Origin: a virus
Length of the DNA: 43,104 bases
Virus record (IMG/VR): IMGVR_UViG_3300005613_000129
Location: 1-43,104 of that record
Strand: one strand, 5' to 3'
Positions 845-43,104 of the stretch are shown one piece after another. The notes beneath the pieces were generated by a model. That model saw only the letters and a list, made by a program, of their open reading frames with translations, ran no database searches and had not been told where the DNA came from. Within the stretch, counting starts at the first letter, position 1; every line of letters begins with the position of its first letter. The position numbers and the translations under genes were made by a program.

Positions 845-850
845 ACACTT

Positions 851-1291: not shown

Positions 1292-1307
1292 ACCCCAAAA
1301 CGACACC

Positions 1308-1598: not shown

Positions 1599-1605
1599 TT
1601 CTTAT

Positions 1606-1629: not shown

Positions 1630-1644
1630 ATTATTATTTTTTTA

Positions 1645-1727: not shown

Positions 1728-1755
1728 CCAGCAGAGCCAGCTGTGACCTCGGCAA

Positions 1756-1819: not shown

Positions 1820-1836
1820 GAAGGGAATTACCCCAA

Positions 1837-2307
1837 ATGAACACTGACCTTCAAGTCATCACCGCTCAACTCGCCACTGTAGCAGAGTCTCTGACCACGC
1901 TACAAGAGGCTCTGGCAGCTGTCCAGGCTCAGCAGGCCCAACAGTCTACCAAGGCCACCAGCAACGCTCTCGCGCCGTTCTCGGCCTTCCTGATGGTGGA
2001 GCTGACACCGTACTTCGGAGGCGGTGGCGCTAAACTGATCGTCGATCGTCTGAATCGCTGCAATGCGATCGGAGACTATCGTTATTTTATTCCCATCTAC
2101 AAGATGGCTGGAGAAGATCTTGAAAAGCGCCAACTTTTGACTCTGATTTCTTCTGTTCATCGCTACAAGTTTATCTACAGTAAGCATCATAATACACCAC
2201 AAAAGTACAGCCTGAAGTCTAAGATCAAGTACGCAAAAGCTTGTCCTCATTGTGGTGCACTTGCTGCTGTTCTTTATGATCGTCTCGTGAAGGAGGGCCT
2301 TCTCTGA
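1837..2307 (+). CDS. Unknown protein with N-terminal coiled coil (156 aa)
   Basis: Residues 1-40 are a Gln/Ala-rich coiled coil (LTTLQEALAAVQAQQAQQ). A hydrophobic stretch with Gly repeats follows (YFGGGGAKLIVDRLNRCNAI), then a basic C-terminal part with a single CPHC knuckle near residue 136. One CxxC pair is not a full zinc site on its own. No family is recognised. The start follows a conserved promoter and short leader. The stop overlaps the next start (TGATG), and an AGGAGG sequence inside the last codons serves the following gene, so the two are co-translated. Confidence 0.65.
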   Translation: MNTDLQVITAQLATVAESLTTLQEALAAVQAQQAQQSTKATSNALAPFSAFLMVELTPYFGGGGAKLIVDRLNRCNAIGDYRYFIPIYKMAGEDLEKRQLLTLISSVHRYKFIYSKHHNTPQKYSLKSKIKYAKACPHCGALAAVLYDRLVKEGLL

Positions 2308-2444
2308 TGCATCTTACTCAAACATACGACATCAAAACTAAAGAAATGTATTGGACTTTTGTTGATACAAATCACCAAATCTGGCACTTCAAATCACATC
2401 AGGTTCAGTCATTCGTTGATGTTCGTTACCGTATCCTACGCTGA
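2307..2444 (+). CDS. Small unknown protein (45 aa), coupled to upstream gene
   Basis: The ATG overlaps the TGA of the preceding gene, and an AGGAGG ribosome-binding site lies 11-17 nt upstream, one of the strongest Shine-Dalgarno sequences in the first 6 kb. The product, beginning MHLTQTYDIKTKEMYWTF, is a 45-aa beta-rich peptide with many aromatic residues. A strong terminator begins 12 nt after the stop, so this is the last gene of a two-gene unit. Function is unknown. Confidence 0.65.
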   Translation: MHLTQTYDIKTKEMYWTFVDTNHQIWHFKSHQVQSFVDVRYRILR

Positions 2445-2456
2445 CAGGCTCACACA

Positions 2457-2483
2457 GGGAGAGAGAAATCTCTCCCTTTTTTT
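2457..2483 (+). terminator. Rho-independent terminator
   Basis: The hairpin GGGAGAGAGAAATCTCTCCC (2457-2476) is followed by seven T residues. The stretch after it, to the next promoter at 2584, is T-rich with TTTTTTCG motifs and carries no R repeat. Confidence 0.9.
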
Positions 2484-2580
2484 ATTATTTTTTTCGTTTT
2501 TTCGTATTCTTCCAAGATCTTGTGCCAATCCTAGAACCGGATCAAACCCTCGCCAGAAGCCTCCAGAAACCCCCACAAGC

Positions 2581-2598
2581 TGCTATAATTACAGAGTC
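2581..2598 (+). promoter_or_regulatory. Extended -10 promoter for the 76-aa gene
   Basis: TGCTATAAT (2581-2589) is a consensus -10 with the extended TGn. GTC follows at 2596-2598, seven bases downstream as in the other promoters. No -35 and no palindrome are visible, so the extended -10 probably substitutes for them. Confidence 0.65.
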
Positions 2599-2614
2599 AA
2601 CCACAGAGAGCCCC

Positions 2615-2845
2615 ATGGCCATCATCACTGACAAGACCATCACTATCAACGGAGTCCAGCACACTGTGACTGCAGTCAATGACATGGATCGTGTTCAAAT
2701 TAACAATGAGCTTCATTATATTGGTGATCAAATCCTGAAGCTTAAGATGCAGCAGGCAGAGCTGATTGAAGCTCGGAATATGATCGACCAATGCAATAAA
2801 GATCGAGATCTCGGTGATCTTTTCCTGGAGATGTTTAGCCTCTGA
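2615..2845 (+). CDS. Small unknown protein (76 aa)
   Basis: The start chosen is the ATG 19 nt after the GTC of a consensus extended -10 promoter. The frame is open further upstream, but through promoter sequence. The protein begins MAIITDKTITINGVQHTVTA, likely a beta hairpin, and continues into a long amphipathic helix or coiled coil (DQILKLKMQQAELIEARNMI) with a short hydrophobic C-terminus. No family is recognised. A terminator begins 8 nt after the stop, making this a single-gene unit. Confidence 0.7.
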   Translation: MAIITDKTITINGVQHTVTAVNDMDRVQINNELHYIGDQILKLKMQQAELIEARNMIDQCNKDRDLGDLFLEMFSL

Positions 2846-2852
2846 TAGTATC

Positions 2853-2894
2853 AGGAGCCTGTGTGAGAGTATCACAAGCTCCTCTACATTTTTT
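2853..2894 (+). terminator. Rho-independent terminator
   Basis: AGGAGC (2853-2858) pairs with GCTCCT (2878-2883), with inner TGTG/CACA pairing, and six T residues follow at 2889-2894. The next ~65 bases are a low-complexity T-rich run with repeated TCGTTTTT. Confidence 0.75.
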
Positions 2895-2960
2895 GAATTT
2901 TTGTAAAAAATCGTTTTTTTAATTTCGTTTTTCGTTTTTTTTTTGATTCTTATGATTTAA

Positions 2961-3044
2961 TTATTTTATGGCAGGATGTTTGTGGCTTACTTATCGTCAT
3001 CGGCCTTCGTGGCCTGTCTCTTCTCTTGTGACCATAGTCTAGCA
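2961..3044 (+). repeat. Dispersed ~80-bp element, copy R4
   Basis: The 5' half is of the R2/R3 type (GGCAGGATGTTTGTGGCTTA). The hairpin is a perfect GGCC-TTCGT-GGCC and the 3' half is TCTTCTCTTGTGACCATAGT followed by CTAGCA, like R2 and R5. Confidence 0.85.
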
Positions 3045-3067
3045 CAGAATCTGGCCAGCGCAGCCAG

Positions 3068-3140
3068 CCAGTCAGATCACTGTCTGGCACAAGACCCCAT
3101 GGACAATGCCGATCCTGACTGTTATTGTATCAATGTAGTT
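3068..3140 (+). promoter_or_regulatory. Palindrome-like site and promoter for the 63-aa gene
   Basis: CCAG (3068-3071) and CTGG (3084-3087) flank 12 bases. TGGACA (3100-3105), a 17-bp spacer and TATTGT (3123-3128) follow, with the variant GTT in place of GTC at 3138-3140. The ATG is at 3154. Confidence 0.55.
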
Positions 3141-3153
3141 CGAAACTGATCCA

Positions 3154-3345
3154 ATGTTCGCTGTTCTTCCCACTGGTGAAGATTATGTCCAGGAAGATGC
3201 ACTTTTCTTCATTGATCTTGAAGATGCCTATCAAGAAGCACTCGATTGGAGCGTTCAACTTGATGGTAGGATTGTAAATGTTTATGAATTTTATCAAGGT
3301 AAATTCAATAATCTTACAAAAGCAAAAGCACAAGTATTTGCATAA
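3154..3345 (+). CDS. Small unknown acidic protein (63 aa)
   Basis: The product begins MFAVLPTGEDYVQEDALFFI and is acidic, with an alpha/beta pattern and a Lys-rich C-terminus. It looks like a short protein type often found in cyanomyovirus genomes, but I know no function. The ATG lies 16 nt after the conserved promoter start. A terminator starts 8 nt after the stop. It is AT-richer than its neighbours to the right. Confidence 0.7.
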   Translation: MFAVLPTGEDYVQEDALFFIDLEDAYQEALDWSVQLDGRIVNVYEFYQGKFNNLTKAKAQVFA

Positions 3346-3353
3346 GAAATAAC

Positions 3354-3377
3354 AAGGATCTTAATGATCCTTTTTTT
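3354..3377 (+). terminator. Rho-independent terminator
   Basis: AAGGATC-TTAAT-GATCCTT (3354-3372) runs into a block of seven T residues (3371-3377). Confidence 0.85.
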
Positions 3378-3390
3378 ATTCTTATTATTC

Positions 3391-3475
3391 AATTATTTTA
3401 TGGCAGGGTTAGCGTGGCTGACTGATCGTCATCGAGCTTCTTGCTCTCCTCTTCTCTTGTACCCATAGTCTAGTA
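3391..3475 (+). repeat. Dispersed ~80-bp element, copy R5
   Basis: The 5' half (TTATGGCAGGGTTAGCGTGG) is identical to R6. The hairpin is GAGC-TTCTT-GCTC and the 3' half is TCTTCTCTTGTACCCATAGT followed by CTAGTA. This copy is followed by its own terminator at 3514 and not by a palindrome. Confidence 0.85.
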
Positions 3476-3513
3476 GGCTGGATGCCGGTTTGGTGGGCTT
3501 CTCCAGGAATTTT

Positions 3514-3546
3514 ACGATAAGAATTTTTTATCGTTTAATTTTTTCG
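3514..3546 (+). terminator. Terminator-like hairpin downstream of R5
   Basis: ACGATAA (3514-3520) pairs with TTATCGT (3528-3534), followed by TTAATTTTTT. There is no ORF between R5 and this hairpin, so any transcript ended here would be noncoding. Confidence 0.55.
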
Positions 3547-3583
3547 TATTTCGTATTCTTATGGGTCGAATGGCGCTGAGTGC

Positions 3584-3621
3584 TTGACAGGCCGATTCCA
3601 GTCGGTTACTGTATGGGTGTC
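3584..3621 (+). promoter_or_regulatory. Consensus-like promoter for the 99-aa gene
   Basis: TTGACA (3584-3589), a 17-bp spacer and TACTGT (3607-3612) are followed by GTC at 3619-3621. It is the only member of the set with a perfect -35, and it lacks the CCAG palindrome. This fits the idea that the palindrome compensates for weak -35 boxes elsewhere. Confidence 0.7.
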
Positions 3622-3637
3622 GTCAGGGATTCATCCC

Positions 3638-3937
3638 ATGCAGATCACAACCAACAACCAGCCACGCGAGCTGATCAGCGCTTTCGAGCTACCGACTGCA
3701 AACTATCAAGAACTGCGGAAACAGTTTGATTACTTGAACGATGAAGAGTTTGAGTGCTCGATGTTCTTCACCTACAAAGGTGAGATCTATTCTCTCAGCG
3801 ACTTTATGCGAATCCATGCTGGCGATCTTCTGGTGAAAGGTTGGCAGGGAATCTACAACTGGCACGCATTCGGTGGCTTGCTTGTTAAGATTAAAGAATC
3901 TTGCCAGAGTGTAGTTGTCGGAACCTACACTTGCTGA
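3638..3937 (+). CDS. Small unknown protein (99 aa)
   Basis: The start is the ATG 19 nt after the promoter GTC; upstream in-frame codons would lie in the promoter. A GGGA-TTCA-TCCC mini-hairpin directly abuts the ATG. The protein begins MQITTNNQPRELISAFELPT and contains a central region rich in aromatic and acidic residues (FDYLNDEEFECSMFFTYKGE). The segment FFTYKGEIYSLSDFMRI resembles a short conserved phage motif, but I cannot name a family. A strong terminator starts 16 nt after the stop. Confidence 0.7.
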   Translation: MQITTNNQPRELISAFELPTANYQELRKQFDYLNDEEFECSMFFTYKGEIYSLSDFMRIHAGDLLVKGWQGIYNWHAFGGLLVKIKESCQSVVVGTYTC

Positions 3938-3952
3938 CATTCTTTACACTTA

Positions 3953-3988
3953 AGAGTTTGTGGTTTTTATCACAAACTCTTTTTTTTT
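3953..3988 (+). terminator. Rho-independent terminator
   Basis: AGAGTTTGTG (3953-3962) pairs with CACAAACTCT (3971-3980), giving a 10-bp stem, followed by eight T residues. Confidence 0.95.
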
Positions 3989-4026
3989 ATTCTTTACACT
4001 TAAGATTTTTTTAATTCTTATTATTC

Positions 4027-4110
4027 AATTATTTTATGGCAGGGTTAGCGTGGCTTACTTATCGTCATCGGCCTTCTTAGCCTCCCCTGGTTGTTGACAT
4101 AATTCTAGCA
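4027..4110 (+). repeat. Dispersed ~80-bp element, copy R6
   Basis: The first ~40 bases, including the AT-rich lead-in, match R5 exactly. The hairpin GGCCTTCTTAGCC and the 3' half (CCCCTGGTTGTTGACATAAT, TCTAGCAG) match R3. Confidence 0.85.
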
Positions 4111-4149
4111 GACCGAGAGCCGATCTGCGAGCCAATCCGGCAAATTAAA

Positions 4150-4218
4150 CCAGTTTAGCCACTGGCACAAGGTGGCCATGGCAGCTGCCGATCTGGGCTG
4201 TAGGATATGGGGGCAGTC
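4150..4218 (+). promoter_or_regulatory. Palindrome and promoter for the 62-aa gene
   Basis: CCAGTTTAGCCACTGG (4150-4165) is followed by CACAAGGTGGC. ATGGCA (4178-4183), a 17-bp spacer and TAGGAT (4201-4206) precede GTC at 4216-4218. The -10 to GTC distance is nine rather than seven, so this is the weakest match of the set. Confidence 0.5.
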
Positions 4219-4229
4219 GCAACCGAGCC

Positions 4230-4418
4230 ATGACAAACTACACCTGGGCCGACAATGCACTTCGCTGCGCCGCTGCGCGGATCCGCGAGCTGCGTCCGGT
4301 GGAACACTACAGCTGGGCGCACTACAGGCAGCAGCGCGAGCGTCAAACCCTGAGCGCTCTTTATGATCACTATTGGGGTGGAATCCGCCGCGAATTCGAG
4401 ACAGCCTACGGCAGCTGA
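4230..4418 (+). CDS. Small unknown Arg-rich protein (62 aa)
   Basis: The product begins MTNYTWADNALRCAAARIRE and is rich in Arg, Ala, Tyr and Trp, with a predicted long helix (YRQQRERQTLSALYDHYWGG). The start lies 14 nt after the GTC of its promoter. Codon use is very G/C-rich, among the most host-like in the window. An alternative frame open at 4172-4366 is rejected because it starts before the promoter -10. No family is recognised and no terminator is seen before the next gene. Confidence 0.6.
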   Translation: MTNYTWADNALRCAAARIRELRPVEHYSWAHYRQQRERQTLSALYDHYWGGIRREFETAYGS

Positions 4419-4484
4419 TTCTCCGGCCTAGGGTATGCCGTTAAACTGCCCTGATTCTCAACAATCCCACTAAACTTTCCAGCC

Positions 4485-4832
4485 ATGCGTAAGATCGAAG
4501 CCCAGATGAATCAAGCCATTCTCGATAAGATCAACTGGCAATCTGCTAACACTAAAGTTAGCTATTCTCCGGAGAATGACTCGTCTTATGTGCATCTTTA
4601 TGGTCACCACATCGCCACGGTTGGTGATAATTATGTGGAGATCTTTAGTCGCGGACATAAGACAGCAACGACAAAGAGCCGCCTAAATGCTATTATCCGC
4701 GAGCACGGAATCGATGGAGAGTGTATCTTCCAGCGTAACTTTGAGTGGTTTGTGCATAAGTTTGTGGGGAAAGCTGGCACTGTTTCTGTGTATGTTGAGA
4801 AAGAATTCGAGGAGGGAATGATTCTTTCCTGA
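4485..4832 (+). CDS. Conserved cyanophage-type unknown protein (115 aa)
   Basis: The product begins MRKIEAQMNQAILDKINWQS. The pattern NWQSANT, a V-x-L-[YH]-G segment (VHLYGHHIA) and the TTKSRLNAII motif recall a protein family widespread in phages and cyanobacteria whose function is unknown to me. The fold looks beta-rich, with a Trp and Tyr-rich core. No member of the GTC promoter set precedes it; TAAACT at 4442-4447 is a possible -10. The stop codon lies within an alternative-hairpin region that leads to the next gene. Confidence 0.7.
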   Translation: MRKIEAQMNQAILDKINWQSANTKVSYSPENDSSYVHLYGHHIATVGDNYVEIFSRGHKTATTKSRLNAIIREHGIDGECIFQRNFEWFVHKFVGKAGTVSVYVEKEFEEGMILS

Positions 4833-4890
4833 CTCTAAACTCTTGGGGGCAGAGTCTAAAAGCCCCCATAATTCCATCGCTATTCTTCTC
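4831..4890 (+). promoter_or_regulatory. Stem-loop leader before the 52-aa gene
   Basis: Two overlapping hairpins are possible: GACTCT (4831-4836) with AGAGTC (4851-4856), or GGGGGC (4845-4850) with GCCCCC (4862-4867). Forming one disrupts the other. The sequence CATAATTCCATCG and TTCTTC before the ATG closely matches the leader of the gene at 6006, where a GGGG/CCCC stem is also present. There is no T-run, so this is not a standard terminator. Confidence 0.5.
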
Positions 4891-5049
4891 ATGACAATCC
4901 GAATCTCTTTCTTTGCACCTTATCCTCGCTTCAATGGCGAGAGAAAGCATCAAGAATTTAAGACAATATCCGAGGCAAAGCGAATGATTGCATTCTACAA
5001 CTCCATGGGATCTTATGATGCAAAGGTCGAAACTTTCGCTGAAAAATAA
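4891..5049 (+). CDS. Small unknown protein (52 aa)
   Basis: The ATG at 4891 follows a leader shared with the gene at 6006. A frame extension back to a TTG at 4843 would read through the stem-loop and is rejected. The protein begins MTIRISFFAPYPRFNGERKH and contains a helix (ISEAKRMIAFYNSMG). It looks like one of the short alpha/beta proteins common in cyanophages. A GC-rich hairpin lies 19 nt after the stop. Confidence 0.6.
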   Translation: MTIRISFFAPYPRFNGERKHQEFKTISEAKRMIAFYNSMGSYDAKVETFAEK

Positions 5050-5067
5050 TAATTAACAATTATGTCA

Positions 5068-5088
5068 GGGCGGCCACGGCTGCCGCCC
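5068..5088. terminator. GC-rich hairpin between convergent-looking elements
   Basis: GGGCGGC (5068-5074) pairs perfectly with GCCGCCC (5082-5088). No T-run follows on the plus strand. On the minus strand the sequence after it is AT-rich (TGACATAATTGTTAATTATT), so it could terminate minus-strand transcription coming from the inverted repeat R7. The direction of action is uncertain. Confidence 0.45.
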
Positions 5089-5094
5089 TTGGCA

Positions 5095-5175
5095 TGTTAG
5101 GATAGGTGAAACCGGGAGAGGCCACGAAGGCCGATGATGACAAGTGAGCCACGCTAACCCTGTCATTTAATAATA
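5095..5175 (-). repeat. Dispersed ~80-bp element, copy R7 (inverted)
   Basis: Read on the minus strand it gives AATGACAGGGTTAGCGTGGC, a GGCC-TTCGT-GGCC hairpin and a diverged 3' part (CTCCCGGTTTCACCTATCCT). It is the only inverted copy, yet it still sits next to the palindrome of the plus-strand promoter for 5264. That argues against the element being a simple 5' leader of the downstream gene. Confidence 0.8.
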
Positions 5176-5176
5176 A

Positions 5177-5247
5177 CAGTGTCCAGTTGGATAATCTGCA
5201 CACTGGCTGCCGCACAATCGCCAAGCTGGCTGTATACTGTAGGAGTC
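5177..5247 (+). promoter_or_regulatory. Inverted repeat and promoter for the DUF6011-like gene
   Basis: CAGTGT (5177-5182) pairs with ACACTG (5200-5205), and CCAGTT/ACTGG lie inside the same region. The -10 is TATACT (5233-5238) and GTC lies at 5245-5247. No good -35 is visible at the 17-bp spacing. A GGAT-TAA-ATCC mini-hairpin abuts the ATG at 5264. Confidence 0.55.
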
Positions 5248-5263
5248 GTCACGGATTAAATCC

Positions 5264-5941
5264 ATGAAAACCGCCACTGCAACAGATCGCTCCGCAGCCA
5301 TCGCTCAAGCGATCCGTCACGCCGCCTTGCGTGACCCTCAGACCCTCACTGTGATCGCTCGCGGCGAGCTTGTGAGCTTTGAGTCGCGCCTGAGCGATGA
5401 CGCCGCTCAGGATCTGCTGCAGTACTGCCCTGGCCGCTTCGCTCAGTCGCTGTGGCAGCAGTCACATGACCGTGGCCTCAGTGAGCGCCAGCTGGCTTGG
5501 GCGCACAAACTGAGCTGTGATCTCCTGCAGGCAGAATCGGATGATGACAATAGCGAGCCGCAATTTAGCCGCTTGTTTGATACTTTCAAAGCTGCAAAAG
5601 CTCGCGGTTTGAAGCGCCTTACGATGCGATTCTCCGGCATTCGTATCAAGCCCAGCAAGGATCTGCAGTCGCTTTGGGTACTGTCTGACACTGAGACTGA
5701 GGAAGGTTATTATGGCCTGCAGCCAAAGTATCTCGGTAAAGTTACACCGCGACGCATGGATTCGCGTTTGTCTGATGATGTTAAGTCGGTTATTTTGGAG
5801 GCTGCCAGTGATCCTCTCACCGCTGCAGTTAGGTATGGGCGTGAGACTGGCAGCTGTAGCTGCTGCGGTCGTGATCTCACAAACCCTGACTCGATTGCGG
5901 CAGGGATTGGTCCTGTCTGCCGTGAAAAGTACGGCCTCTGA
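5264..5941 (+). CDS. DUF6011-like protein with C-terminal four-cysteine site
   Basis: The protein is 225 aa. The C-terminal 30 residues carry a compact metal-binding pattern: C198, C200, C201 and C219 in SCSCCGRDLTNPDSIAAGIG and GPVC, which recalls DUF6011-type phage proteins. The middle (LSERQLAWAHKL near residue 80) is the other feature shared with that group; a loosely conserved domain (FDTFKAAKARGLKRLTMRF) follows. The function is unknown; nucleic-acid binding is a reasonable guess from the zinc-knuckle-like end. It has a conserved-type promoter and a 19-nt leader. Base composition is the most G/C-rich in the window (63% over 5281-5340 by hand count), in sharp contrast to the late genes. 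Confidence 0.75.
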   Translation: MKTATATDRSAAIAQAIRHAALRDPQTLTVIARGELVSFESRLSDDAAQDLLQYCPGRFAQSLWQQSHDRGLSERQLAWAHKLSCDLLQAESDDDNSEPQFSRLFDTFKAAKARGLKRLTMRFSGIRIKPSKDLQSLWVLSDTETEEGYYGLQPKYLGKVTPRRMDSRLSDDVKSVILEAASDPLTAAVRYGRETGSCSCCGRDLTNPDSIAAGIGPVCREKYGL

Positions 5942-5954
5942 GTGTAGCTAACTG

Positions 5955-6005
5955 TCCTGGGGCATGACATAAAACTACCCCACAATTCCATCGTTTTTCT
6001 TCATT
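5955..6005 (+). promoter_or_regulatory. Stem-loop leader before the 68-aa gene
   Basis: GGGG (5959-5962) can pair with CCCC (5978-5981) across CATGACATAAAACTA. The following ACAATTCCATCG and TTCTTC before the ATG match the leader of the gene at 4891 almost base for base, so the two genes share a regulatory leader distinct from the GTC promoters. Confidence 0.5.
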
Positions 6006-6212
6006 ATGACCAACAATTCTGTAGTTAAATTCTTCCAAACCTGGCAGGATTGGCGTTGGTTTGGTAGGTTGGGGCCAGTGGAAGTTGGCTTCGATTTGCA
6101 ACAACAATGGGATGATTTAGAGGTAATTTGGTATACCTGGGATGTGAAAGGTGTGGGGTTTAGTATTTACTGGTGTCGCCAAAATGGCTGGGTTAAGATC
6201 AACTGGGAATGA
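6006..6212 (+). CDS. Small unknown Trp-rich protein (68 aa)
   Basis: The product begins MTNNSVVKFFQTWQDWRWFG and has nine Trp in 68 residues, suggesting a compact beta structure or a surface-binding peptide. No family is recognised. The ATG is supported by the leader shared with the gene at 4891. A strong 10-bp hairpin begins 10 nt after the stop. This is the last gene of the G/C-rich part; base composition falls abruptly downstream. Confidence 0.6.
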   Translation: MTNNSVVKFFQTWQDWRWFGRLGPVEVGFDLQQQWDDLEVIWYTWDVKGVGFSIYWCRQNGWVKINWE

Positions 6213-6221
6213 GGATCTTAT

Positions 6222-6250
6222 GGATGTACAGTATAAACAACTGTACATCC
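6222..6250 (+). terminator. 10-bp hairpin after the Trp-rich gene
   Basis: GGATGTACAG (6222-6231) pairs perfectly with CTGTACATCC (6241-6250) around a nine-base loop. The downstream GTATTCTTTATAG is only moderately T-rich, so it may be a weak terminator or an mRNA-stabilising 3' end. It sits at the base-composition boundary. Confidence 0.5.
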
Positions 6251-6542
6251 GTATTCTTTATAGTATTAAAAGCGTATAAAGGTATAAAGTGACAGTCTAG
6301 AAAGTGTCACAGGGACAGTTGATTGATCGCCCATGCCATGGTAGGGTTGGGCCATGCGTTAAAAAAAGTTAGGTACCATAAGGCTACAAAACTAGGTACA
6401 TACCATAAGAATATTAAACGCATAAGAACAAAAAAAATCCGCCCACATAAAAAATCAAAAAAACCCCCACAAGAAAAAAAATCGCCGCCCAAAAAATCAC
6501 ATAAAACCTCTCATGCTAAAATCAAATGCGAAAACCATTTCC
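6251..6542. other. Low-complexity intergenic region, no convincing gene
   Basis: The stretch contains an inverted repeat GTGACA (6289-6294)/TGTCAC (6305-6310) and, from about 6360, long A-tracts. A frame is open from 6323 to 6700 but encodes a Lys/Pro/His-rich low-complexity product across a repeat, so I do not call it. A small part at the right is a 38-bp duplicated unit, listed separately. Confidence 0.5.
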
Positions 6543-35918: not shown

Positions 35919-36374
35919 ATGAAAATGACTAAAAAATACAAAAAACTAAATGAGACATTTAATATAGATGATAATTCTGATGAAGTTATTCATCCAGAAA
36001 TTACAGAAGAAGATTCCAAAGATATTATATCAAAGGAAGAGTCTTTGATTGACGATATCAGAAAAGATTATGAGTATACTCGTGGGAATCTATACTCAAT
36101 TATAGAAAAAGGTCAAGAAGCAATTAATAATGTCCTCGAATTGGCACAAGAAACAGATACTCCAAGAGCTTATGAAGTTGTTGGACAGTTAATTAAAAAT
36201 GTTTCTGATGCTACAGATAAACTTATGGATCTACAAAAGAAGATCAAAGCATTAGACGAAACAAAAACACAAAGAGGTCCTACTAATGTTACTAATGCTT
36301 TATTTGTTGGCTCCACTGCAGAATTGTCAAAAATGCTTAAAAATCAACTAAAAGATAGTTCCGACGATAAATAA
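35919..36374 (+). CDS. gp16: Terminase small subunit gp16
   Basis: The protein is 151 aa, against 164 in T4. The central helical region (YEYTRGNLYSIIEKGQEAIN, LAQETDTPRAYEVVGQLIKN) is the conserved gp16 coiled-coil core that forms the oligomeric ring, and the end (FVGSTAELSKMLKN) is the conserved C-terminal tail. gp16 recognises DNA and stimulates the ATPase and regulates the nuclease of gp17. A GGAAG lies before the ATG; MTKKYKK three codons later is a possible alternative start. The gene is not directly followed by gp17: a 395-aa gene intervenes. Its stop overlaps a late promoter. Confidence 0.92.
   Translation: MKMTKKYKKLNETFNIDDNSDEVIHPEITEEDSKDIISKEESLIDDIRKDYEYTRGNLYSIIEKGQEAINNVLELAQETDTPRAYEVVGQLIKNVSDATDKLMDLQKKIKALDETKTQRGPTNVTNALFVGSTAELSKMLKNQLKDSSDDK
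36366..36373 (+). promoter_or_regulatory. T4-type late promoter after gp16
   Basis: GATAAATA fits the late consensus, lies across the gp16 stop and 31 nt before the next start. It would transcribe the inserted 395-aa gene and gp17. Confidence 0.65.
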
Positions 36375-36404: not shown

Positions 36405-37592
36405 ATGAAAAGAATTAACGAAGACCACAAAGAAATTGCCAGTGGCAAGAAAAAAGATGACGAAGGCTACATGGCAAGAATTGAATTGGATTCAATTGAG
36501 AGATCAATTAAGAATCTAAGAAAAGCAATTAAGAGCGCAGATACTCAACTCCCTGCTTGGGTACAATCAAAAATTACAAGAGCAGCTGATTATATTGATT
36601 CTGCAACTGAGTACCTCCAAAGTGATCAGGATTTAGATGAGAATATATCATTTGATGTAAATCCAAAAAAACATAAAAAGGAAACAGTAAAAAATAAAGT
36701 AACTAAAATAATAGATAAACCAGGAACTCCAGGTGAAGGCGAAGCAGCAGTAAATACAGTGAGAAAAAAAGGTGGTACTGGTGTAATTAGTGTCCCAAAA
36801 TACAAACATTTACCTCCATATTATAGAGAACCACAAAAGGAAGAAACTTTACTGGTAGATAAAATCTTATCCGAAATGGGATGTGGTAGCGATAAAAAGA
36901 AAAAAAAGAAAAAGACTCAATACGAAGCAAAAGAACCAAAAAACTCAGTAAAACCACATAAGACTCCAGAGGAAATCGCAAAAAAGAAAGATCCATGTTG
37001 GGATGGATATAGAAAAGATCCAAGTAAAAAAGACTATGAAGAAGGTTCTTGTGTTAAGATAGATGAGGCTATTATGCCACAAAAGAACGGACATAATATG
37101 TCTGTGACTCTTATGTGGAGAGCAAAATATTATAATATTCAAATGTTTTTTCCTCAGTTGAGAATCCCAAATCGCAGAGAAGTTGCAGATGAAGCGAATA
37201 AAGTATATCCTGGGTGTAAAGTAATAACTTATGCTCCTTGTGCGATACAAAGAAATGTTCCTATAGTTCAAGTCCCAGATAAAAAGTCTAAGAACTATCT
37301 TATGAATAACGGAACTATTGGAGAAGAAACCGAAAAAAAGCCTCTGGGAAAGCCTATGAGGACACCAGGAGAAAGAAAAAAGTTTAAAGTTTATGTAAAG
37401 GATCCTGATACTGGAAATATTATTACAGTTCGTTTTGGTGATCCAAACATGGAAATTAGGAGAGATGACCCAAAAAGACTGAAAGCTTTTAGAGATAGAC
37501 ACAATTGCGACTCTCCGGAAGCAAAAGACAAAACAACTGCAAAGTATTGGTCTTGTTACCAATGGAGAAAAGGTAAAAAAGTAGAAGATTAA
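36405..37592 (+). CDS. Lys-rich multidomain protein with DUF5872 end, between gp16 and gp17
   Basis: The protein is 395 aa, very rich in Lys. In order: residues 24-74 are a helical domain (ELDSIERSIKNLRKAIKSAD, QLPAWVQSKITRAADYIDSA) seen in several cyanophage proteins; 75-195 are low-complexity and charged; 196-222 hold a DPCWDGY motif of a kind also found at the ends of other cyanophage proteins; 230-290 are a small compact domain (MWRAKYYNIQMFFPQLRIPN); and 315-390 resemble DUF5872 (KKFKVYVKDPDTGNIITVRF, RLKAFRDRHNCDSPEAKDKT, YWSC). It looks like a fusion of several cyanophage modules. Position between the terminase subunits suggests a packaging or virion-DNA role, or simply an insertion. 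Unknown function. Confidence 0.75.
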   Translation: MKRINEDHKEIASGKKKDDEGYMARIELDSIERSIKNLRKAIKSADTQLPAWVQSKITRAADYIDSATEYLQSDQDLDENISFDVNPKKHKKETVKNKVTKIIDKPGTPGEGEAAVNTVRKKGGTGVISVPKYKHLPPYYREPQKEETLLVDKILSEMGCGSDKKKKKKKTQYEAKEPKNSVKPHKTPEEIAKKKDPCWDGYRKDPSKKDYEEGSCVKIDEAIMPQKNGHNMSVTLMWRAKYYNIQMFFPQLRIPNRREVADEANKVYPGCKVITYAPCAIQRNVPIVQVPDKKSKNYLMNNGTIGEETEKKPLGKPMRTPGERKKFKVYVKDPDTGNIITVRFGDPNMEIRRDDPKRLKAFRDRHNCDSPEAKDKTTAKYWSCYQWRKGKKVED

Positions 37593-37610
37593 TTTTTAAA
37601 CTATTGTATT

Positions 37611-39806
37611 ATGGCTGAAGAACATTATTTGGGTAATCCGTTACTCAAGAAAGCGAATACTCAAATTGAATTTACTGAAAAGCAAATTATAGAATTCGCA
37701 AAGTGCGCTAATGATCCTGTATACTTTGCGAATAATTATATTCAAATTGTTACTCTAGATCATGGTCTGCAACCTTTTGATATGTATCCATTCCAAGAAA
37801 GAATGTTGAAGTCTTTTCATGAGAATCGATTTAATATCTGTAAGCTCCCACGTCAGTCAGGGAAAAGTACAACCGTAGTTTCATACCTACTTCATTATGC
37901 AATTTTCAATGACAATGTAAATATTGCTATTCTAGCAAACAAAGCACAGACAGCTAGGGATCTGCTTGGGCGTTTACAGACTGGTTATGAGAATCTACCA
38001 AAGTGGCTCCAACAAGGTATCTGCTCATGGAATAAAGGCTCGCTAGAATTGGAAAACGGATCTAAGATTTTTGCCGCTTCAACTTCTGCGTCTTCTGTTC
38101 GTGGTAGTACTTACAATATTATTTTCTTGGACGAATTTGCATTCGTTCCAAATCAAGTTGCCGACTCATTCTTTAGTTCTGTATATCCTACGATTACTTC
38201 TGGTAAGTCTTCAAAGGTGATTGTCGTATCTTGTGTAACAAAAGATACTTATCTACTTACAGATAAAGGATACAGAAAAATAGAAACATTAATTGACCCA
38301 AACAAAGAAGGTGCGTATATCACAAATCAATACACAATCAGAGGAAAAGATAAATTCTATTCGAGTGATGTTCTAGTCAATCATAAAAAATCACCAACCA
38401 ATATCATAAGAACAAGATACGAAGAAATAGAATGCTCCCTAGAGCATAAGTTGTGGGCGTATAAAGACGGAAAATACGATTATGTAAAAAGTCAAGATCT
38501 GTCCGTAGGAGATTATATTGCATTAAAATACAATCAACAAATTTTTGGTAATGATGATTATGTAGGGTTTAATCCAGAAAAAGGAAAATCAAAAAATCTA
38601 TTTTCCTGTGATTATATTAATGAAGATATTGCGTACTTTATAGGTCTTTATGTATCAGAAGGTTATGCTAGAAACATAGTCAATAATGATACCGGAAATC
38701 ACAGAGGAGGACAAGTCATCATATCCTGTGGAGATGACATCTCTTCTTCATTGAATAAATTGAATCTTGCCCATTCAAAAACTGATGATGTACATTATAC
38801 AATCAATTCAAAACAATTAGTTGAGTTTATTGAGCTATTAGGATTTGATATTAATAAAAAATCAAATGAGAAAATTTTACCAGATAAAGTCTTATCTTGG
38901 TCAAAGAAAAACATTGTCTCACTACTGAGAGGAATGTTTGATGGGGATGGTTGTATCAATAAAAGAGGAAGAGTAACTTATACATCAACATCTAAAGAAC
39001 TAACAAGGCAAGTTCAACTTCTACTAGCAAATCTTGGAATTATTGGTTCAATTTATAAAACCACATCAAAACCAACAGAATTAGTTAAAGTATATTCCAC
39101 TCATTATACCATCGAAATTACTGGATCTTATGTGATCAAGTATTTTGATGAGATTGGATTTGGACTACAAAGAAAACAAGAAAGAGTCAGTTTGGTGAAG
39201 CATTCAAGTAGAAATGGAAGCACAATTGATATTATTCCTGGATCGTCTTTAATTATTGAACAAAACAAGAATAAAGACATTCGCAAACTTAAACTCAAAT
39301 CTGGTAGACCCAAAAACTTTAGAAACTATTCTCGTCAGTTTCTACTCACCAAGCGTCAGTCTCTTTATGAGAATTCTAATGAGACTCTCAGAGAGTTTCT
39401 AGATGATAATGTTCGGGAGGATATGGTCTGGCTAAAGATAAAAGATATTGAGCAATCTTATAATGAAGTCTTTGATGTTTCACTTCCTGATATTGATGGT
39501 GATAAGTGGGCGCATTCGGTTCTTTATAATAACTTCTTAGGACACCAAACGCCTAAAGGTCTCAATCATTTCTATAAATTATGGGACGATGCAATCAAGG
39601 GAAAGAATGAATATGTACCAATTGAGGTGTTTTGGACTGATGTTCCAGGGAGAGACGAAGAATTTAAGAAAACGACAATCGCCAACACAAGCGAAAGTCA
39701 ATGGAGGCAAGAATTTGAGTCGGTCTCAACCGAGACGCAGATTGAGATTAAAGAGGCGGGAATCCGTAGGACGATAACCATTGGTGACCTTTATGATGTG
39801 CTATAA
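37611..39806 (+). CDS. gp17: Terminase large subunit gp17, N-terminal part, with a complete intein and a split-intein N-piece
   Basis: This 731-aa ORF encodes the ATPase half of the packaging motor plus two intein segments. Residues 1-207 are terminase: Walker A RQSGKST (81-87) and Walker B IIFLDEF (170-176). Residues 208-646 are a complete intein with a LAGLIDADG endonuclease. Residues 647-703 resume terminase at TPKGLNHFYKLWDDAIKG, the coupling motif region (TTTPNG in T4), and end WRQEFE. Residues 704-731 (SVSTETQIEIKEAGIRRTIT plus IGDLYDVL) are a 28-residue split-intein N-piece followed by a stop. The terminase then continues in the ORF at 40072. Without splicing the product lacks the nuclease domain. 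Mature gp17 (207+57+285 residues) would be about 549 aa; T4 gp17 is 610. Confidence 0.93.
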   Translation: MAEEHYLGNPLLKKANTQIEFTEKQIIEFAKCANDPVYFANNYIQIVTLDHGLQPFDMYPFQERMLKSFHENRFNICKLPRQSGKSTTVVSYLLHYAIFNDNVNIAILANKAQTARDLLGRLQTGYENLPKWLQQGICSWNKGSLELENGSKIFAASTSASSVRGSTYNIIFLDEFAFVPNQVADSFFSSVYPTITSGKSSKVIVVSCVTKDTYLLTDKGYRKIETLIDPNKEGAYITNQYTIRGKDKFYSSDVLVNHKKSPTNIIRTRYEEIECSLEHKLWAYKDGKYDYVKSQDLSVGDYIALKYNQQIFGNDDYVGFNPEKGKSKNLFSCDYINEDIAYFIGLYVSEGYARNIVNNDTGNHRGGQVIISCGDDISSSLNKLNLAHSKTDDVHYTINSKQLVEFIELLGFDINKKSNEKILPDKVLSWSKKNIVSLLRGMFDGDGCINKRGRVTYTSTSKELTRQVQLLLANLGIIGSIYKTTSKPTELVKVYSTHYTIEITGSYVIKYFDEIGFGLQRKQERVSLVKHSSRNGSTIDIIPGSSLIIEQNKNKDIRKLKLKSGRPKNFRNYSRQFLLTKRQSLYENSNETLREFLDDNVREDMVWLKIKDIEQSYNEVFDVSLPDIDGDKWAHSVLYNNFLGHQTPKGLNHFYKLWDDAIKGKNEYVPIEVFWTDVPGRDEEFKKTTIANTSESQWRQEFESVSTETQIEIKEAGIRRTITIGDLYDVL
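38232..39548 (+). other. Intein 1 in gp17 (contiguous, LAGLIDADG endonuclease)
   Basis: A 439-aa intein begins at Cys208 (CVTKDTYLLTDKGYRKIETL, block A) and ends GHQ before Thr647. Block B is SLEHKLW (His279). The endonuclease motifs are FIGLYVSEG (343-351) and LLRGMFDGDG (438-447), with probable catalytic acids Glu350 and Asp446. Both are intact, so an active homing enzyme is plausible. The final intein residue is Gln in place of the usual Asn, and the +1 residue is Thr; Gln-ending inteins are known. Removing it joins KVIVVS to TPKGLNHFY, which restores the terminase motif. Cis-splicing must occur for the N-half to be functional. Confidence 0.9.
39720..39803 (+). other. Split intein 2, N-piece (28 aa, Ser1)
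   Basis: The segment SVSTETQIEIKEAGIRRTIT then IGDLYDVL ends at the ORF stop. It aligns in form with the ~25-residue N-piece of the AceL-TerL split intein (a short strand, a turn, then I-x-D-L-Y near the end). It begins with Ser, as reported for the metagenomic GOS-TerL split intein, which combines Ser1 and Cys+1. The upstream extein ends QEFE. By hand count 40 of its 84 bases are G or C, higher than in the matching C-piece. Confidence 0.88.
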
Positions 39807-39832
39807 TGATCTAAATCATAAAAACCAAACCA

Positions 39833-40033
39833 ATGAAACCATCAAAAGAAGATCTAATGTATGATTACTTTGAACTGAACTTGTCCCAGCAAGAGATCGC
39901 TGAGAAATATGGCTCCAAAACAAGACAAGTCATTGGTCGTTTGTTCAAAAAATATGATATTCAACCAAAAAGTAAAAGTCAATTGGTTGAAGAACGGATG
40001 GAAAAGAAAAAAAACCAACAAAAGAAGAATTAA
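39833..40033 (+). CDS. 66-aa helix-turn-helix protein between the terminase halves, probable endonuclease remnant
   Basis: The product begins MKPSKEDLMYDYFELNLSQQ, and residues 17-43 (SQQEIAEKYGSKTRQVIGRL, then FKKYDI) form a clear helix-turn-helix. It ends in a Lys/Gln-rich tail. Genes between the halves of split-intein-split genes often encode free-standing homing endonucleases; this ORF has the kind of DNA-binding repeat seen in such enzymes but no catalytic domain. A frameshifted second repeat start follows immediately, so it is probably the truncated remains of a larger endonuclease, or a small DNA-binding protein now used for something else. A TATAAT hexamer overlaps the preceding stop at 39802-39807. 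Confidence 0.65.
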   Translation: MKPSKEDLMYDYFELNLSQQEIAEKYGSKTRQVIGRLFKKYDIQPKSKSQLVEERMEKKKNQQKKN

Positions 40034-40050
40034 TTTCTCTGTATAAATGA
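40012..40050 (+). pseudogene. Frameshifted remnant of a second HTH repeat
   Basis: Just after an eight-A run (40007-40014), a shifted frame reads KPTKEELISLYK then stop. This matches KPSKEDLMYDYF, the start of the 66-aa ORF, in its first eight positions apart from conservative changes. It looks like the beginning of a second tandem DNA-binding repeat, lost by a slip in the A-run and a later deletion. Confidence 0.6.
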
Positions 40051-40071
40051 TCCACAAGAAGCATTAAATAA

Positions 40072-40437
40072 ATGCATAAGATTCTTAATAACATGAACCT
40101 ACCAGATACAGTAGTAAAAAATCATAAGAATATAAAAATACTCACGCCAAATGGTTATGAATCATTCTTTGGGGTGAATAAGATCAAAAAAAACAATTAT
40201 GCACATTTGATTTTTGAGAATGGAAAAGAACTTAAGTGTTCACTAGATCATCCATTATCAACAATAGAAGGAATCATAAAAGCAAAAGATCTCGATAAAA
40301 ATACCGAAATTTTAACAAAGAGCGGCGGAACTTTCTTAAAATCTCGTAGAGTTGTCAAAAAAGATATAGAATTATTTGATATCGTCAATTCTGGTAAAAA
40401 TCATCTATATTATACAAACGACATTGTATCCCACAAC
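40072..40437 (+). other. Split intein 2, C-piece (about 115-122 aa)
   Basis: Characteristic positions: NIKILTPNGYESFFGVNKI (residues 20-38), matching the NIKILSPNGF start of the AceL-TerL C-piece; CSLDHPL with block-B His60; and the end LYYTNDIVSHN (112-122) directly before Cys+1. The intein carries no endonuclease domain. Two 60-base lines from this part (40141-40260) hold 38 G/C of 120, so it is as AT-rich as the late genes around it, unlike the N-piece. Confidence 0.9.
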
Positions 40438-41295
40438 TGCGAATTTTTAGGTTCAGTAGACACATTGATTTCTGGTGCAAAGCTATCAACACTAACACAA
40501 GAAAGACCAATCAAATCAAATGCTGGCTTTGATATATATGAAAATCCAAAAGAAGATCATCAATATGTAATTACTGTAGATGTTGCTAGAGGAGTAGAAA
40601 TAGACTATTCTGCTTTTGTCGTTTTTGATATTACAACATTCCCATATAGGGTAGTAGCAAAATATAAAAATAATGAAATTAAACCCATGATGTTTCCATA
40701 CATCATTAGAGATGCTGGCAAAGTATATAATGATGCATATTTATTATGTGAAATTAATGATGTAGGAGATCAAGTAGCTTCTGCATTACATTATGATCTA
40801 GAATATCCAAATGTTCTAATGTGTTCAATGCGCGGAAGAGCAGGTCAAATTGTAGGTCAGGGATTTTCTGGGAAAAAAACTCAAATGGGCGTAAAAATGT
40901 CCAAAAATGTCAAGAAAGTTGGTTGTATAAATTTAAAAGCTATTATCGAAGAAGAAAAATTAATATTCAATGACTACGATATTATATCAGAATTGACCAC
41001 ATTTGTCCAAAAATATAGTTCATTCGAAGCAGAAGAAGGGTGTAATGATGATTTAACTATGTGTTTAGTTATTTTTGCTTGGCTAATCGTTCAGGATTAT
41101 TTTAAAGAAATGACTGACATTGATGTCAGAAAAAGATTATATGAAGAGCAACAAAATCAATTAGAGCAAGATATGGCTCCATTTGGCTTTATTATTGACG
41201 GAAGAGAGGAAAATAATTTTGTAGATTCCGATGGAACTCGTTGGTTTACTGATGAATATGGCGATATGTCTTATATGTGGGAATATAATTTCTAA
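40072..41295 (+). CDS. gp17: Terminase large subunit gp17, C-terminal part, led by a split-intein C-piece
   Basis: This 407-aa ORF starts with about 122 residues of split intein and continues at Cys123 into terminase: CEFLGSVDTLISGAKLSTLT, the region that follows WRQEFE in gp17. The nuclease domain that cuts the concatemer is complete, with likely metal-binding residues Asp170 (VITVDVARG), Glu227 (LLCEINDVG) and Asp326 or Asp327 (CNDDLTMCL), in the order of T4 Asp401, Glu458 and Asp542. Start choice is 40072 or the Met at 40093; the latter gives a C-piece closer to AceL-TerL length. A weak TATAAATG (40042-40049) may be a late promoter. GCATT/AATGC (40061-40075) can hide the first start codon in a small hairpin. 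Confidence 0.93.
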   Translation: MHKILNNMNLPDTVVKNHKNIKILTPNGYESFFGVNKIKKNNYAHLIFENGKELKCSLDHPLSTIEGIIKAKDLDKNTEILTKSGGTFLKSRRVVKKDIELFDIVNSGKNHLYYTNDIVSHNCEFLGSVDTLISGAKLSTLTQERPIKSNAGFDIYENPKEDHQYVITVDVARGVEIDYSAFVVFDITTFPYRVVAKYKNNEIKPMMFPYIIRDAGKVYNDAYLLCEINDVGDQVASALHYDLEYPNVLMCSMRGRAGQIVGQGFSGKKTQMGVKMSKNVKKVGCINLKAIIEEEKLIFNDYDIISELTTFVQKYSSFEAEEGCNDDLTMCLVIFAWLIVQDYFKEMTDIDVRKRLYEEQQNQLEQDMAPFGFIIDGREENNFVDSDGTRWFTDEYGDMSYMWEYNF

Positions 41296-41307
41296 AATAC
41301 CATTTTT

Positions 41308-41315
41308 CATAAATA
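41308..41315 (+). promoter_or_regulatory. T4-type late promoter before gp18
   Basis: CATAAATA fits the late consensus, 13 bases after the terminase stop and 36 nt before the gp18 ATG. A GGGAG ribosome-binding sequence lies 6-11 nt upstream of the start. Confidence 0.75.
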
Positions 41316-41351
41316 TTTTTTAGAGAAATAGAGTATTTCAGGGAGAAAAAC

Positions 41352-43104
41352 ATGGCGACTCCTCAATTATCTCCAGGCATTCTTGTCAGAGAGGTTGATT
41401 TAACTGTAGGAAGAGCTGATAATGTCATTGATAACATTGGAGCAATTGCTGGTCCTTTTGCGATTGGTCCAGTCGAAGAACCAATTGACATTACAACAGA
41501 ACAAGAGTTAATCAATACTTTTGGCAAACCTCTTTCAACCGATGCTCAGTATGAGTATTGGATGAGTGCATCTTCATATCTATCTTATGGTGGTATACTA
41601 AAAGTAGTTAGAGTAGATGATACTAACCTTAAGAATGCAAGAGTTGGTTACAATACGACTGCAACAGTTGATATTAAAAACTTTGATGATTATAATTCTC
41701 AAGAAACTGGAAGTTATCACTTTGCAGCAAAAACTCCAGGAACTTGGGCAAATAATCTTAAAGTTTGTGTAATTGATGATAAGGCAGACCAGATTATTGG
41801 AATCAATACTACAAATTTATCTAATATTGGTGCAAAAATTGGATATGGGGTTACCGTTTCTCTAACTAACGTAACTTTTGCTGGCGTTGGAGCAACTTCG
41901 GTGTTTAGTGGACACCTAAAAGGAATTATAACTGGAGTAACAACAGATGTAACAAATGGAAACAGCACTGTTGATGTAAAAATAGTTTCTAGGGTATCAT
42001 CCACATCTGCAGAATATAAAACTACACTACAAACAACTGCTTCTCAACTTGCTGGTATTGGTACAGATATTGTTTATGTTTCTAGTACAACAGGATTAAA
42101 TACATTAGATACACTAACTGCACCAGGACTGAATAATTTAACGATTACATCAGTTGGTTCTTCCACAGTTTCTCTTGCAAGCACTATAAGTTCTGCTATT
42201 AATTCTGGAGTTGCAGTAACATTTTCTAGATTAGTAACTATTGGTGGAGAAGAAGTTAGTATTAATTATTCGGAAGGTTCTAGATTTGGACAAATCCAAT
42301 CCGGTGACACCATAACCTTTGTTAATAATTCCGGTATCGCTACTGGTACTTCTCCAGTATCTTCTACACTAGATTGGTATAATCAGCAGACTCTGGGATT
42401 AACAAACTCAACTTTATTCTGGAGATCTATTGCACCAAGACCAGTAACAAATCAGTATGCAGCAACTCGAAATGCAAAGAATGATGCGCTAAACATTGTA
42501 ATTATTGATGATACTGGATCTTTAACTGGTGTTCAAGGTAATATCCTTGAGAAGCACACTTCGATTTCTAAGGCAACTGATTCTGTTTCTGGAGTAAATT
42601 CACCACAAAAGACTTGGTATAGAAATTATCTTGCCAACTTCTCAAATTATGTTTACTCAGGAACAAATTATTACACCTCGGAAGATACTTTAAATAATGT
42701 AACTCCCGTTACAACTGGGTTTACCACATACTCTGGTGTTCCTGCTGATTCATTTACTCCATTAAATGCTTCTTCTGGTGGTTGGAATCAAGAAGCACAG
42801 GGAACAGTATTTAATGCGATTGGAAACGTAACATTTGAACTTTCTGCAGGTGCTGATTATTCTGGTAACGGGGCAAAAGCAGAATTGGGTGGATTAAGTT
42901 CTGCATATGATCTCTTCTCAAATTCAGATGAAGTTGAGGTTGATTATTTAATTTGTGGTCCTGGACTAGAGACAAAAGAAGATTCACAAGCAAAAGCAAA
43001 TAAAATTATCTCAATTGCTGAAAATCGTAAAGATTGTGTTGCTGTAATTTCACCATACAGAGGTGCAGTAGTTGATATTACAAATACAACTACACAAACA
43101 GATA
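41352..43104 (+). CDS. gp18: Tail sheath protein gp18 (partial, runs off the window)
   Basis: The frame is open from the ATG to the window end (584 codons). The N-terminus MATPQLSPGILVREVDLTVG, then NIGAIAGPFAIGPVEEPI and the YEYWMSASSYLSYGG motif near residue 72, are typical of cyanomyovirus tail sheath. The sheath polymerises around the tail tube and contracts to drive it into the host. Residues about 234-292 (AGIGTDIVYVSSTTGL, SLASTISSAINSGVAVTF) form a module also found in the 1498-aa structural protein at 18509. A perfect-order late promoter and strong ribosome-binding site precede it, as expected for a protein needed in many copies. The C-terminal core lies outside. Confidence 0.95.
   Translation, partial: MATPQLSPGILVREVDLTVGRADNVIDNIGAIAGPFAIGPVEEPIDITTEQELINTFGKPLSTDAQYEYWMSASSYLSYGGILKVVRVDDTNLKNARVGYNTTATVDIKNFDDYNSQETGSYHFAAKTPGTWANNLKVCVIDDKADQIIGINTTNLSNIGAKIGYGVTVSLTNVTFAGVGATSVFSGHLKGIITGVTTDVTNGNSTVDVKIVSRVSSTSAEYKTTLQTTASQLAGIGTDIVYVSSTTGLNTLDTLTAPGLNNLTITSVGSSTVSLASTISSAINSGVAVTFSRLVTIGGEEVSINYSEGSRFGQIQSGDTITFVNNSGIATGTSPVSSTLDWYNQQTLGLTNSTLFWRSIAPRPVTNQYAATRNAKNDALNIVIIDDTGSLTGVQGNILEKHTSISKATDSVSGVNSPQKTWYRNYLANFSNYVYSGTNYYTSEDTLNNVTPVTTGFTTYSGVPADSFTPLNASSGGWNQEAQGTVFNAIGNVTFELSAGADYSGNGAKAELGGLSSAYDLFSNSDEVEVDYLICGPGLETKEDSQAKANKIISIAENRKDCVAVISPYRGAVVDITNTTTQTD

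What the first reader, a model, noticed from the sequence alone, without database searches (positions are those of the whole stretch)
37611..41295. Phage large terminase made from two genes by a Ser1/Cys+1 atypically split intein
The terminase ATPase half ends WRQEFE, then 28 residues beginning Ser and a stop; 265 bases later a second ORF begins with an intein C-piece ending VSHN and resumes terminase at CEFLGS. The pieces resemble AceL-TerL (25-residue N-piece) and GOS-TerL (Ser1 with Cys+1), which were described from metagenomic fragments. Here the split intein lies in its full T4-like genome context, with every neighbour visible, so the packaging motor of this phage should depend on trans-splicing.
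Basis: partly seen in the sequence, partly recalled or inferred. Interest (0 to 1): 0.95.

Follow-up and report, generated by a model that had tools for sequence, protein, structure and literature searches.

The report
Terminase gene split by trans-splicing intein
This virus makes its DNA-packaging motor as two separate proteins that a self-splicing protein tag (a split intein) must join; the tag belongs to a known family that spreads between phages with a DNA-cutting gene, and here that gene is dead while the split remains.

Summary
The terL ORF (37611-39806) ends SQWRQEFE plus a 28-residue intein N-piece starting with Ser. After 265 bases, the second ORF (40072-41295) starts with an intein C-piece ending VSHN and resumes terminase at CEFLGS. 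Intein-free relatives at 87-90% identity in the C-half read QWRQEFE-CEFLGS without interruption. A second intein, not mentioned in the finding (439 aa, 38232-39548), also sits in the N-half, so the 549-aa motor needs one cis-splice and one trans-splice.

The C-piece matches Cat, the engineered consensus of GOS-TerL and AceL-TerL, by sequence (E 1.7e-20) and predicted fold (TM 0.81), and is under strong purifying selection. I found 46 further viral contigs with the same split site; 44 of 47 (window included) are Ser1, and all have SHN|Cys+1. Many carry a 315-390-aa endonuclease between the halves. Pairwise comparisons show the cassette homes between phages. In the window the endonuclease is a relic; no locus has re-fused.

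It is not new in kind: isolated T4-like phages (e.g. Aeromonas PX29, annotated as such) have Cys1 split TerL inteins at this site. New here: Ser1/Cys+1 breadth, homing evidence and repeated endonuclease loss. No splicing was shown.

The parts
37611..38231 (+). TerL extein A (207 aa): Walker A, Walker B, up to VIVVS
   Evidence: Pfam Terminase_6N E 8.3e-20; PHROG terminase large subunit E 2.4e-57; 99% aa identity to intein-free L012
38232..39548 (+). First intein, contiguous, 439 aa, Cys1 ... HQ|Thr+1, with LAGLIDADG endonuclease motifs (FIGLYVSEGY, LLRGMFDGDG)
   Evidence: LAGLIDADG_3 E 1.9e-18, Intein_splicing E 5.3e-8, TIGR01445 above cut-off; absent from L001/L005/L012; shared with L002/L003
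39549..39719 (+). TerL extein B (57 aa), ends SQWRQEFE
   Evidence: 98% aa identity to L001/L002/L005; aligns to T4 gp17 up to T353
39720..39803 (+). Split intein N-piece, 28 aa, Ser1; stop codon 39804-39806
   Evidence: IGxLY motif (L or I) present in 47/47 loci; Ser1 in 44/47; pooled pN/pS of relatives 0.18
39833..40033 (+). Relic of homing endonuclease gene, head (66-aa ORF, HTH); in the other frame the match runs on to ~40046 (KKPTKEELISLYK)
   Evidence: 77% aa identity to residues 1-60 of the 369-aa endonuclease of L002; frames compared
40049..40096 (+). Relic of homing endonuclease gene, last codons (DPQEALNKCIRFLIT*), ATGA overlap (40093-40096) with IntC Met8
   Evidence: L001 endonuclease ends DPQETLNKCIRFLTQ* with the same ATGA overlap; about 280 codons between head and tail are missing
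40072..40437 (+). Split intein C-piece, 122 aa (115 aa if started at Met8, 40093), ends VSHN
   Evidence: phmmer to Cat intein 6dsl E 1.7e-20; AlphaFold model pLDDT 91.8 matches 6dsl TM 0.81; dN/dS 0.055-0.063
40438..41295 (+). TerL extein C (285 aa, Cys+1): RNase H-like nuclease domain
   Evidence: Pfam Terminase_6C E 1.1e-11; 90% aa identity to L012
34901..35905 (+). gp15-like tail sheath stabilizer (context)
   Evidence: PHROG_227 E 3.7e-94
35919..36374 (+). gp16-like small terminase (context)
   Evidence: PHROG_445 E 5.5e-50
41352..43104 (+). gp18-like tail sheath, runs off the window (context)
   Evidence: PHROG_23 E 2.3e-37

Best explanation
A T4-like (cyanophage-type) virus encodes its large terminase as two proteins fused to the halves of an atypically split class 1 intein. 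The N-protein (ATPase, still carrying a contiguous intein that must splice in cis) ends with a 28-aa IntN. The C-protein starts with a 115-122-aa IntC. The pieces meet, Ser1 makes an oxoester, Cys+1 takes over the N-extein by transesterification, the terminal Asn of SHN cyclises, and QEFE is joined to CEFLGS to give a 549-aa TerL. The split intein entered as a mobile cassette: IntN, a free-standing HTH + IEFDGxxWH endonuclease, IntC. The endonuclease presumably cuts intein-less terL and copies the cassette in. In this phage the endonuclease has been deleted down to a relic, but the split cannot be undone without losing TerL, so the intein persists under purifying selection. Shown here: anatomy, exact junction, homology and predicted fold, selection, independent occurrence, horizontal movement of the cassette in relatives. 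Inferred: the chemistry and its success in vivo, the endonuclease target, dependence of packaging on splicing.
For: Exact empty-site junction in 87-90% identical relatives. IntC matches Cat (E 1.7e-20; TM 0.81, E 7.9e-9), with block B CSLDH, SHN and Cys+1 all kept; catalytic columns are invariant in the alignment. IntC dN/dS 0.055-0.063 against L001/L002; IntN pooled pN/pS 0.18. Same split site in 47 loci with both halves, 35 distinct: SHN and Cys+1 47/47, IGxLY in IntN 47/47, Ser1 44/47, fused 0/47. Loci L160-L163 and L167 have IntN 37 and IntC 115, the published lengths of GOS-TerL, which is Ser1/Cys+1 and splices (PMC11766414). Homing: L006 vs L009 99.7% identical over the 1536-nt insert but 89% and 76% in the flanks; L001 vs L005 97.8% against 83-89% on the 3' side. 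Endonuclease presence changes at least 13 times on the IntC tree (a quick tree with open forks), including sister pairs such as L155/L157 and L175/L176. T4 gp17 cut at the linker loses translocation (PMC3012670).
Against: No protein or splicing data exist for this phage. IntN alone has no PDB sequence match, being only 28 aa. Ser1 to Cys+1 is thermodynamically uphill, and GOS-TerL splices only moderately fast (PMC11766414). The window is mosaic: IntC is 96% like L001, whose IntN is only 46% like the window's; IntN and endonuclease head are nearer to L002 (54%, 73%), so the two pieces may not be a long-coevolved pair. The endonuclease-deletion junction was not found in any other contig, so a local assembly join at about 40.03-40.05 kb cannot be excluded. 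Both candidate parents are, however, split at the same place.
Confidence: 0.9

Rival explanations
1. Genes-in-pieces without splicing: the halves work as a two-chain terminase, as in the split ribonucleotide reductase of some T4-like phages, and the intein pieces are dead tails.
For: A split ribonucleotide reductase that functions as two peptides is known (cited in PMC10448857); N- and C-domains of T4 gp17 keep their ATPase and nuclease activities when separated (PMC9958956).
Against: Intein pieces keep the catalytic residues in 47/47 loci and are under purifying selection. Separated T4 domains lose translocation (PMC3012670).
Confidence: 0.05
2. The gap is a self-splicing intron (group I or II) that joins the two reading frames in mRNA, as in terL of phage ICP1.
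For: ICP1 terL is RNA-spliced (PMC10448857); the gap holds endonuclease remains.
Against: Rfam finds no intron at E up to 1 in 37000-41500. The pieces flanking the gap are intein-coding and selected as protein. In L154 the two ORFs overlap by ATGA and in L160 only 4 nt separate them, leaving no room for an intron.
Confidence: 0.02
3. Assembly artefact: the gap or the join at ~40.03-40.05 kb is chimeric.
For: Left part (IntN, endonuclease head) resembles L002, right part (IntC) resembles L001; the change of kinship coincides with the deletion; the junction 20-mer occurs in no other IMG/VR contig.
Against: The split arrangement itself is in 46 other contigs, and both candidate parents are split. 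Window IntC is not L001's (dS 0.35), and the flanking exteins are well diverged from both L001 and L002. Other loci (L146, L151, L155, L175, L197) have comparable endonuclease deletions.
Confidence: 0.1

Closest known systems
GOS-TerL split intein (Bachmann and Mootz; reviewed in PMC11766414)
   Same: Ser1/Cys+1, atypical short IntN, IntC 115 aa (window from Met8), large terminase; 70% IntC identity to IMG/VR loci with GOS-TerL's exact piece lengths (L160 group)
   Different: IntN 28 instead of 37 aa; endonuclease relic in the gap, where the L160 group has only 4 nt; N-half carries a second, cis-splicing intein
AceL-TerL and the engineered consensus Cat (PDB 6dsl)
   Same: Same host protein and split region; C-piece fold and sequence match; Cys1 relatives L024-L042 sit at the same TerL site
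   Different: Cys1 instead of Ser1; the Cys1 clade carries a 189-aa GIY-YIG endonuclease instead of the HTH/IEFDGxxWH type
Split gp17A/gp17B of Aeromonas phage PX29 and relatives (Providencia PSTRCR_127, Serratia 92A1)
   Same: T4-like phage genomes with TerL split at the same site; GenBank notes for PX29 name N-intein, C-intein and GIY-YIG endonuclease
   Different: Cys1, IntC only about 28-33% identical
'Fractured genes' (Dassa et al. 2009, cited in PMC10448857; paper itself not held)
   Same: Gene broken by a split intein with a free-standing endonuclease between the halves
   Different: In the window the endonuclease is dead; whether this endonuclease is the family of that paper was not tested against its sequences

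Membership tests
Class 1 split intein | Nucleophile at position 1, block B His, C-terminal His-Asn, Cys/Ser/Thr +1 | tested here: met
   Ser1, CSLDH, SHN, Cys+1 in window; invariant or nearly so in relatives
Class 1 split intein | HINT fold | tested here: met
   IntC model pLDDT 91.8; best PDB matches are inteins and intein-like domains, 6dsl TM 0.81; IntN not modelled with it
Class 1 split intein | Trans-splicing activity | not testable with these tools
   needs co-expression and mass spectrometry
GOS-TerL/AceL-TerL atypically split TerL inteins | Short IntN (25-37 aa), IntC of ~104-115 aa, inserted in large terminase | tested here: met
   28 aa and 115-122 aa; TerL by Pfam/PHROGs; lengths from PMC11766414
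GOS-TerL | Ser1 with Cys+1 | tested here: met
GOS-TerL | Direct sequence homology to the published GOS-TerL protein | tested here: inconclusive
   published sequence not available in the tools; L160-type loci have the exact 37/115 lengths and 70% IntC identity to the window
Fractured gene with free-standing homing endonuclease | Intact endonuclease ORF between the halves | tested here: not met
   window has only head and tail of the endonuclease; intact in L001, L002, L006, L016 and others
Homing mobile element | Element nearly identical between hosts whose flanks have diverged | tested here: met
   met for relatives L006/L009, L001/L005; for the window only weakly (IntC dS 0.35 against extein dS about 1-1.9)

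The most novel reading that the evidence does not exclude
The Ser1/Cys+1 TerL split intein is a large, actively homing phage family in which the endonuclease gene between the halves is lost again and again while the gene never re-fuses: fracture of an essential gene acts as an evolutionary one-way ratchet, leaving phages that depend on trans-splicing after the selfish gene that brought it has died. The window is such an end state, possibly with IntN and IntC of different ancestry, so the pieces must cross-react.
Probability: 0.6. Interest if true: 0.65.

Novelty: new member of a known kind. Interest (0 to 1): 0.5.

Why it matters
[quoted passage not shown] Here the combination is seen in 34 distinct IntN/IntC pairs (44 loci), so the odd chemistry looks like a stable natural solution and gives a ready panel for protein engineering (IntN of 27-47 aa, several with endonuclease-free, adjacent genes). 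The set also lets one test directly whether a gene fractured by a split intein can ever be mended once the endonuclease is gone, and it shows a virus whose packaging motor should be a trans-spliced protein.

Tried and rejected
Intron instead of intein: Rfam scan at E up to 1 found only two non-intron hits below their gathering scores. IntN alone against PDB: no match. Deletion-junction 20-mer in viral contigs: none. Ser1 IntC profile in 84,980 prokaryote genomes: no relative, so this looks viral. Intein family Pfam PF14890 in the own record by six-frame search: no match at the cut-off, although the ORFs themselves hit it weakly. Left end of the window (1-6.5 kb, GC 0.45 against 0.32) considered as a sign of a chimeric contig: its few matches are Synechococcus phages and it has no plasmid match, so not pursued. 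Dassa 2009 paper not held. Low identity of window IntN to L001's IntN first looked like a misassembly; kept only as a possible local join because both parents are split.
Full report
Observation. The reading frames are as described. ORF 37611-39806 ends SQWRQEFE followed by 28 residues starting with Ser and a TAA stop; 265 bases on, ORF 40072-41295 opens with 122 residues ending VSHN and continues CEFLGS. Eleven intein-free loci (L012-L015, L017-L023; C-half 87-90% identical) read QWRQEFE-CEFLGS without a break, which fixes the junction between window bases 39719 and 40438. The neighbours are gp15-, gp16- and gp18-like genes, with baseplate-wedge and head-closure genes upstream: a T4-like virion module. 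The record is a 43-kb linear virus fragment, not a whole genome.

A second intein. The first ORF is 731 aa, of which 439 (38232-39548) form a contiguous intein with LAGLIDADG motifs between VIVVS and TPKGLNH. It begins with Cys and ends HQ before Thr.

What the pieces are. The C-piece matches the Cat intein, the engineered consensus of GOS-TerL and AceL-TerL, at E 1.7e-20. A predicted structure (pLDDT 91.8) has 6dsl (Cat) as its best PDB match (TM 0.81, E 7.9e-9), followed by gp41-1 and other inteins. Block B CSLDH, SHN and Cys+1 are intact. IntC has dN/dS 0.055-0.063 against L001 and L002, and IntN of close relatives pools to pN/pS 0.18.

Relatives. A profile of Ser1 C-pieces found 61 IMG/VR loci and none in 84,980 prokaryote genomes. 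Forty-six of them plus the window hold both complete halves: 35 distinct pairs, Ser1 in 44 loci and Cys1 in 3 (L164-L166), SHN|Cys in all 47, IG.[LI]Y in every IntN, IntN 27-47 aa, and never a fused gene. Five loci (L160-L163, L167) have IntN 37 and IntC 115, the lengths published for GOS-TerL (PMC11766414). A second clade at the same site (L024-L042) is Cys1, AceL-like, with a GIY-YIG endonuclease between the halves. Sequenced phages also have the Cys1 arrangement at this site, and PX29 is annotated as such in GenBank. The claim that only metagenomic fragments were known is therefore not right, although Ser1 copies seem to be metagenomic so far: the 43 phage-collection matches to IntC are all under 60% identical, and of those read here none showed Ser1 at this site.

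Endonuclease and mobility. In 19 of 35 distinct Ser1-family pairs a 315-390-aa ORF (HTH plus, in most, a C-terminal IEFDGxxWH motif; those tested hit DUF559/MTES_1575) lies between the halves. In L001 and the window the endonuclease frame ends in an ATGA overlap with the IntC start. Pairs of contigs show insert identity far above flank identity, with edges at the intein ends: L006/L009 99.7% over 1536 nt against 89% and 76%; L001/L005 97.8% against 83-89% on the 3' side; L033/L039 in the Cys1 clade 96.6% against 71-74% on the 3' side. This is the mark of homing of the whole cassette. In the window the endonuclease is dead: its first ~72 codons (with a frameshift in an A-run) and last 15 codons remain and about 280 codons are gone. 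Presence/absence of the endonuclease changes at least 13 times on the IntC tree (quick tree, several open forks), and sister pairs such as L155/L157, L175/L176 and L191/L192 differ only recently. None of the losses re-fused the gene.

Mosaic. The window's IntC is 96% like L001 (IntN of L001 only 46% like the window's), whereas its IntN and endonuclease head are nearer to L002 (54%, 73%; IntC 80%) (L144 is the same contig as L002). Either recombination joined two alleles, with the deletion at the joint, or the assembly did; the joint was not found elsewhere. Both candidate parents are split, so the main conclusion does not depend on this.

Mechanism. The junction maps to T4 gp17 T353/A354, at the end of the ATPase domain. 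T4 gp17 split at the linker keeps ATPase and nuclease but loses translocation (PMC3012670, PMC9958956), so splicing is most likely essential. GOS-TerL, with the same nucleophiles, splices at 2.4e-3 per second at 37 C, its IntN can be cut to 27 aa and exchanged with AceL's (PMC11766414), so a 28-aa IntN and some cross-reactivity are plausible. None of this has been shown for the window.

Verdict. Observation confirmed; interpretation supported; novelty moderate.

Noticed in passing
window 38232-39548: Contiguous 439-aa LAGLIDADG intein in terL at VS|T, ending in Gln (HQ) instead of Asn; the copy in L002/L003 has degenerate endonuclease motifs. Best phage relative is in Psychrobacillus phage Perkons terminase (27% identity).
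   Followed up: partly
L002:2579-3643; L007:635-2233; L008:3046-4638; L016:1860-3467; L041:3551-5143; L078:4237-5829: Further inteins in the TerL P-loop (a mini-intein in L002, ~330-aa LAGLIDADG inteins in the others); L002 TerL would need three splicing events.
   Followed up: partly
L005:7042-8061: Yet another contiguous intein in the TerL nuclease domain (EGCNDDLVM|C...HN|CLVIF), so this terL has at least four intein sites.
   Followed up: no
L081:1837-4053; L085:1-1962; L086:628-2589: In Vibrio phages VP-1, K469 and 1.244.A the N-half carries IntN plus a GIY-YIG-like endonuclease fused in one ORF before the stop.
   Followed up: no
L141:2995-4323: Campylobacter phage CP30A encodes the IntC-TerL C-half next to gp13 with no N-half gene adjacent; the N-half may lie elsewhere in the genome.
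   Followed up: no
window 1-6500: GC 0.45 here against about 0.32 in the rest, with an anti-restriction-like gene (359-844); only weak matches, to Synechococcus phages. Possible foreign segment or contig join near 6.5 kb.
   Followed up: partly
L164-L166: Cys1 copies nested in the Ser1 clade on a quick IntC tree: a possible Ser to Cys change at position 1.
   Followed up: no
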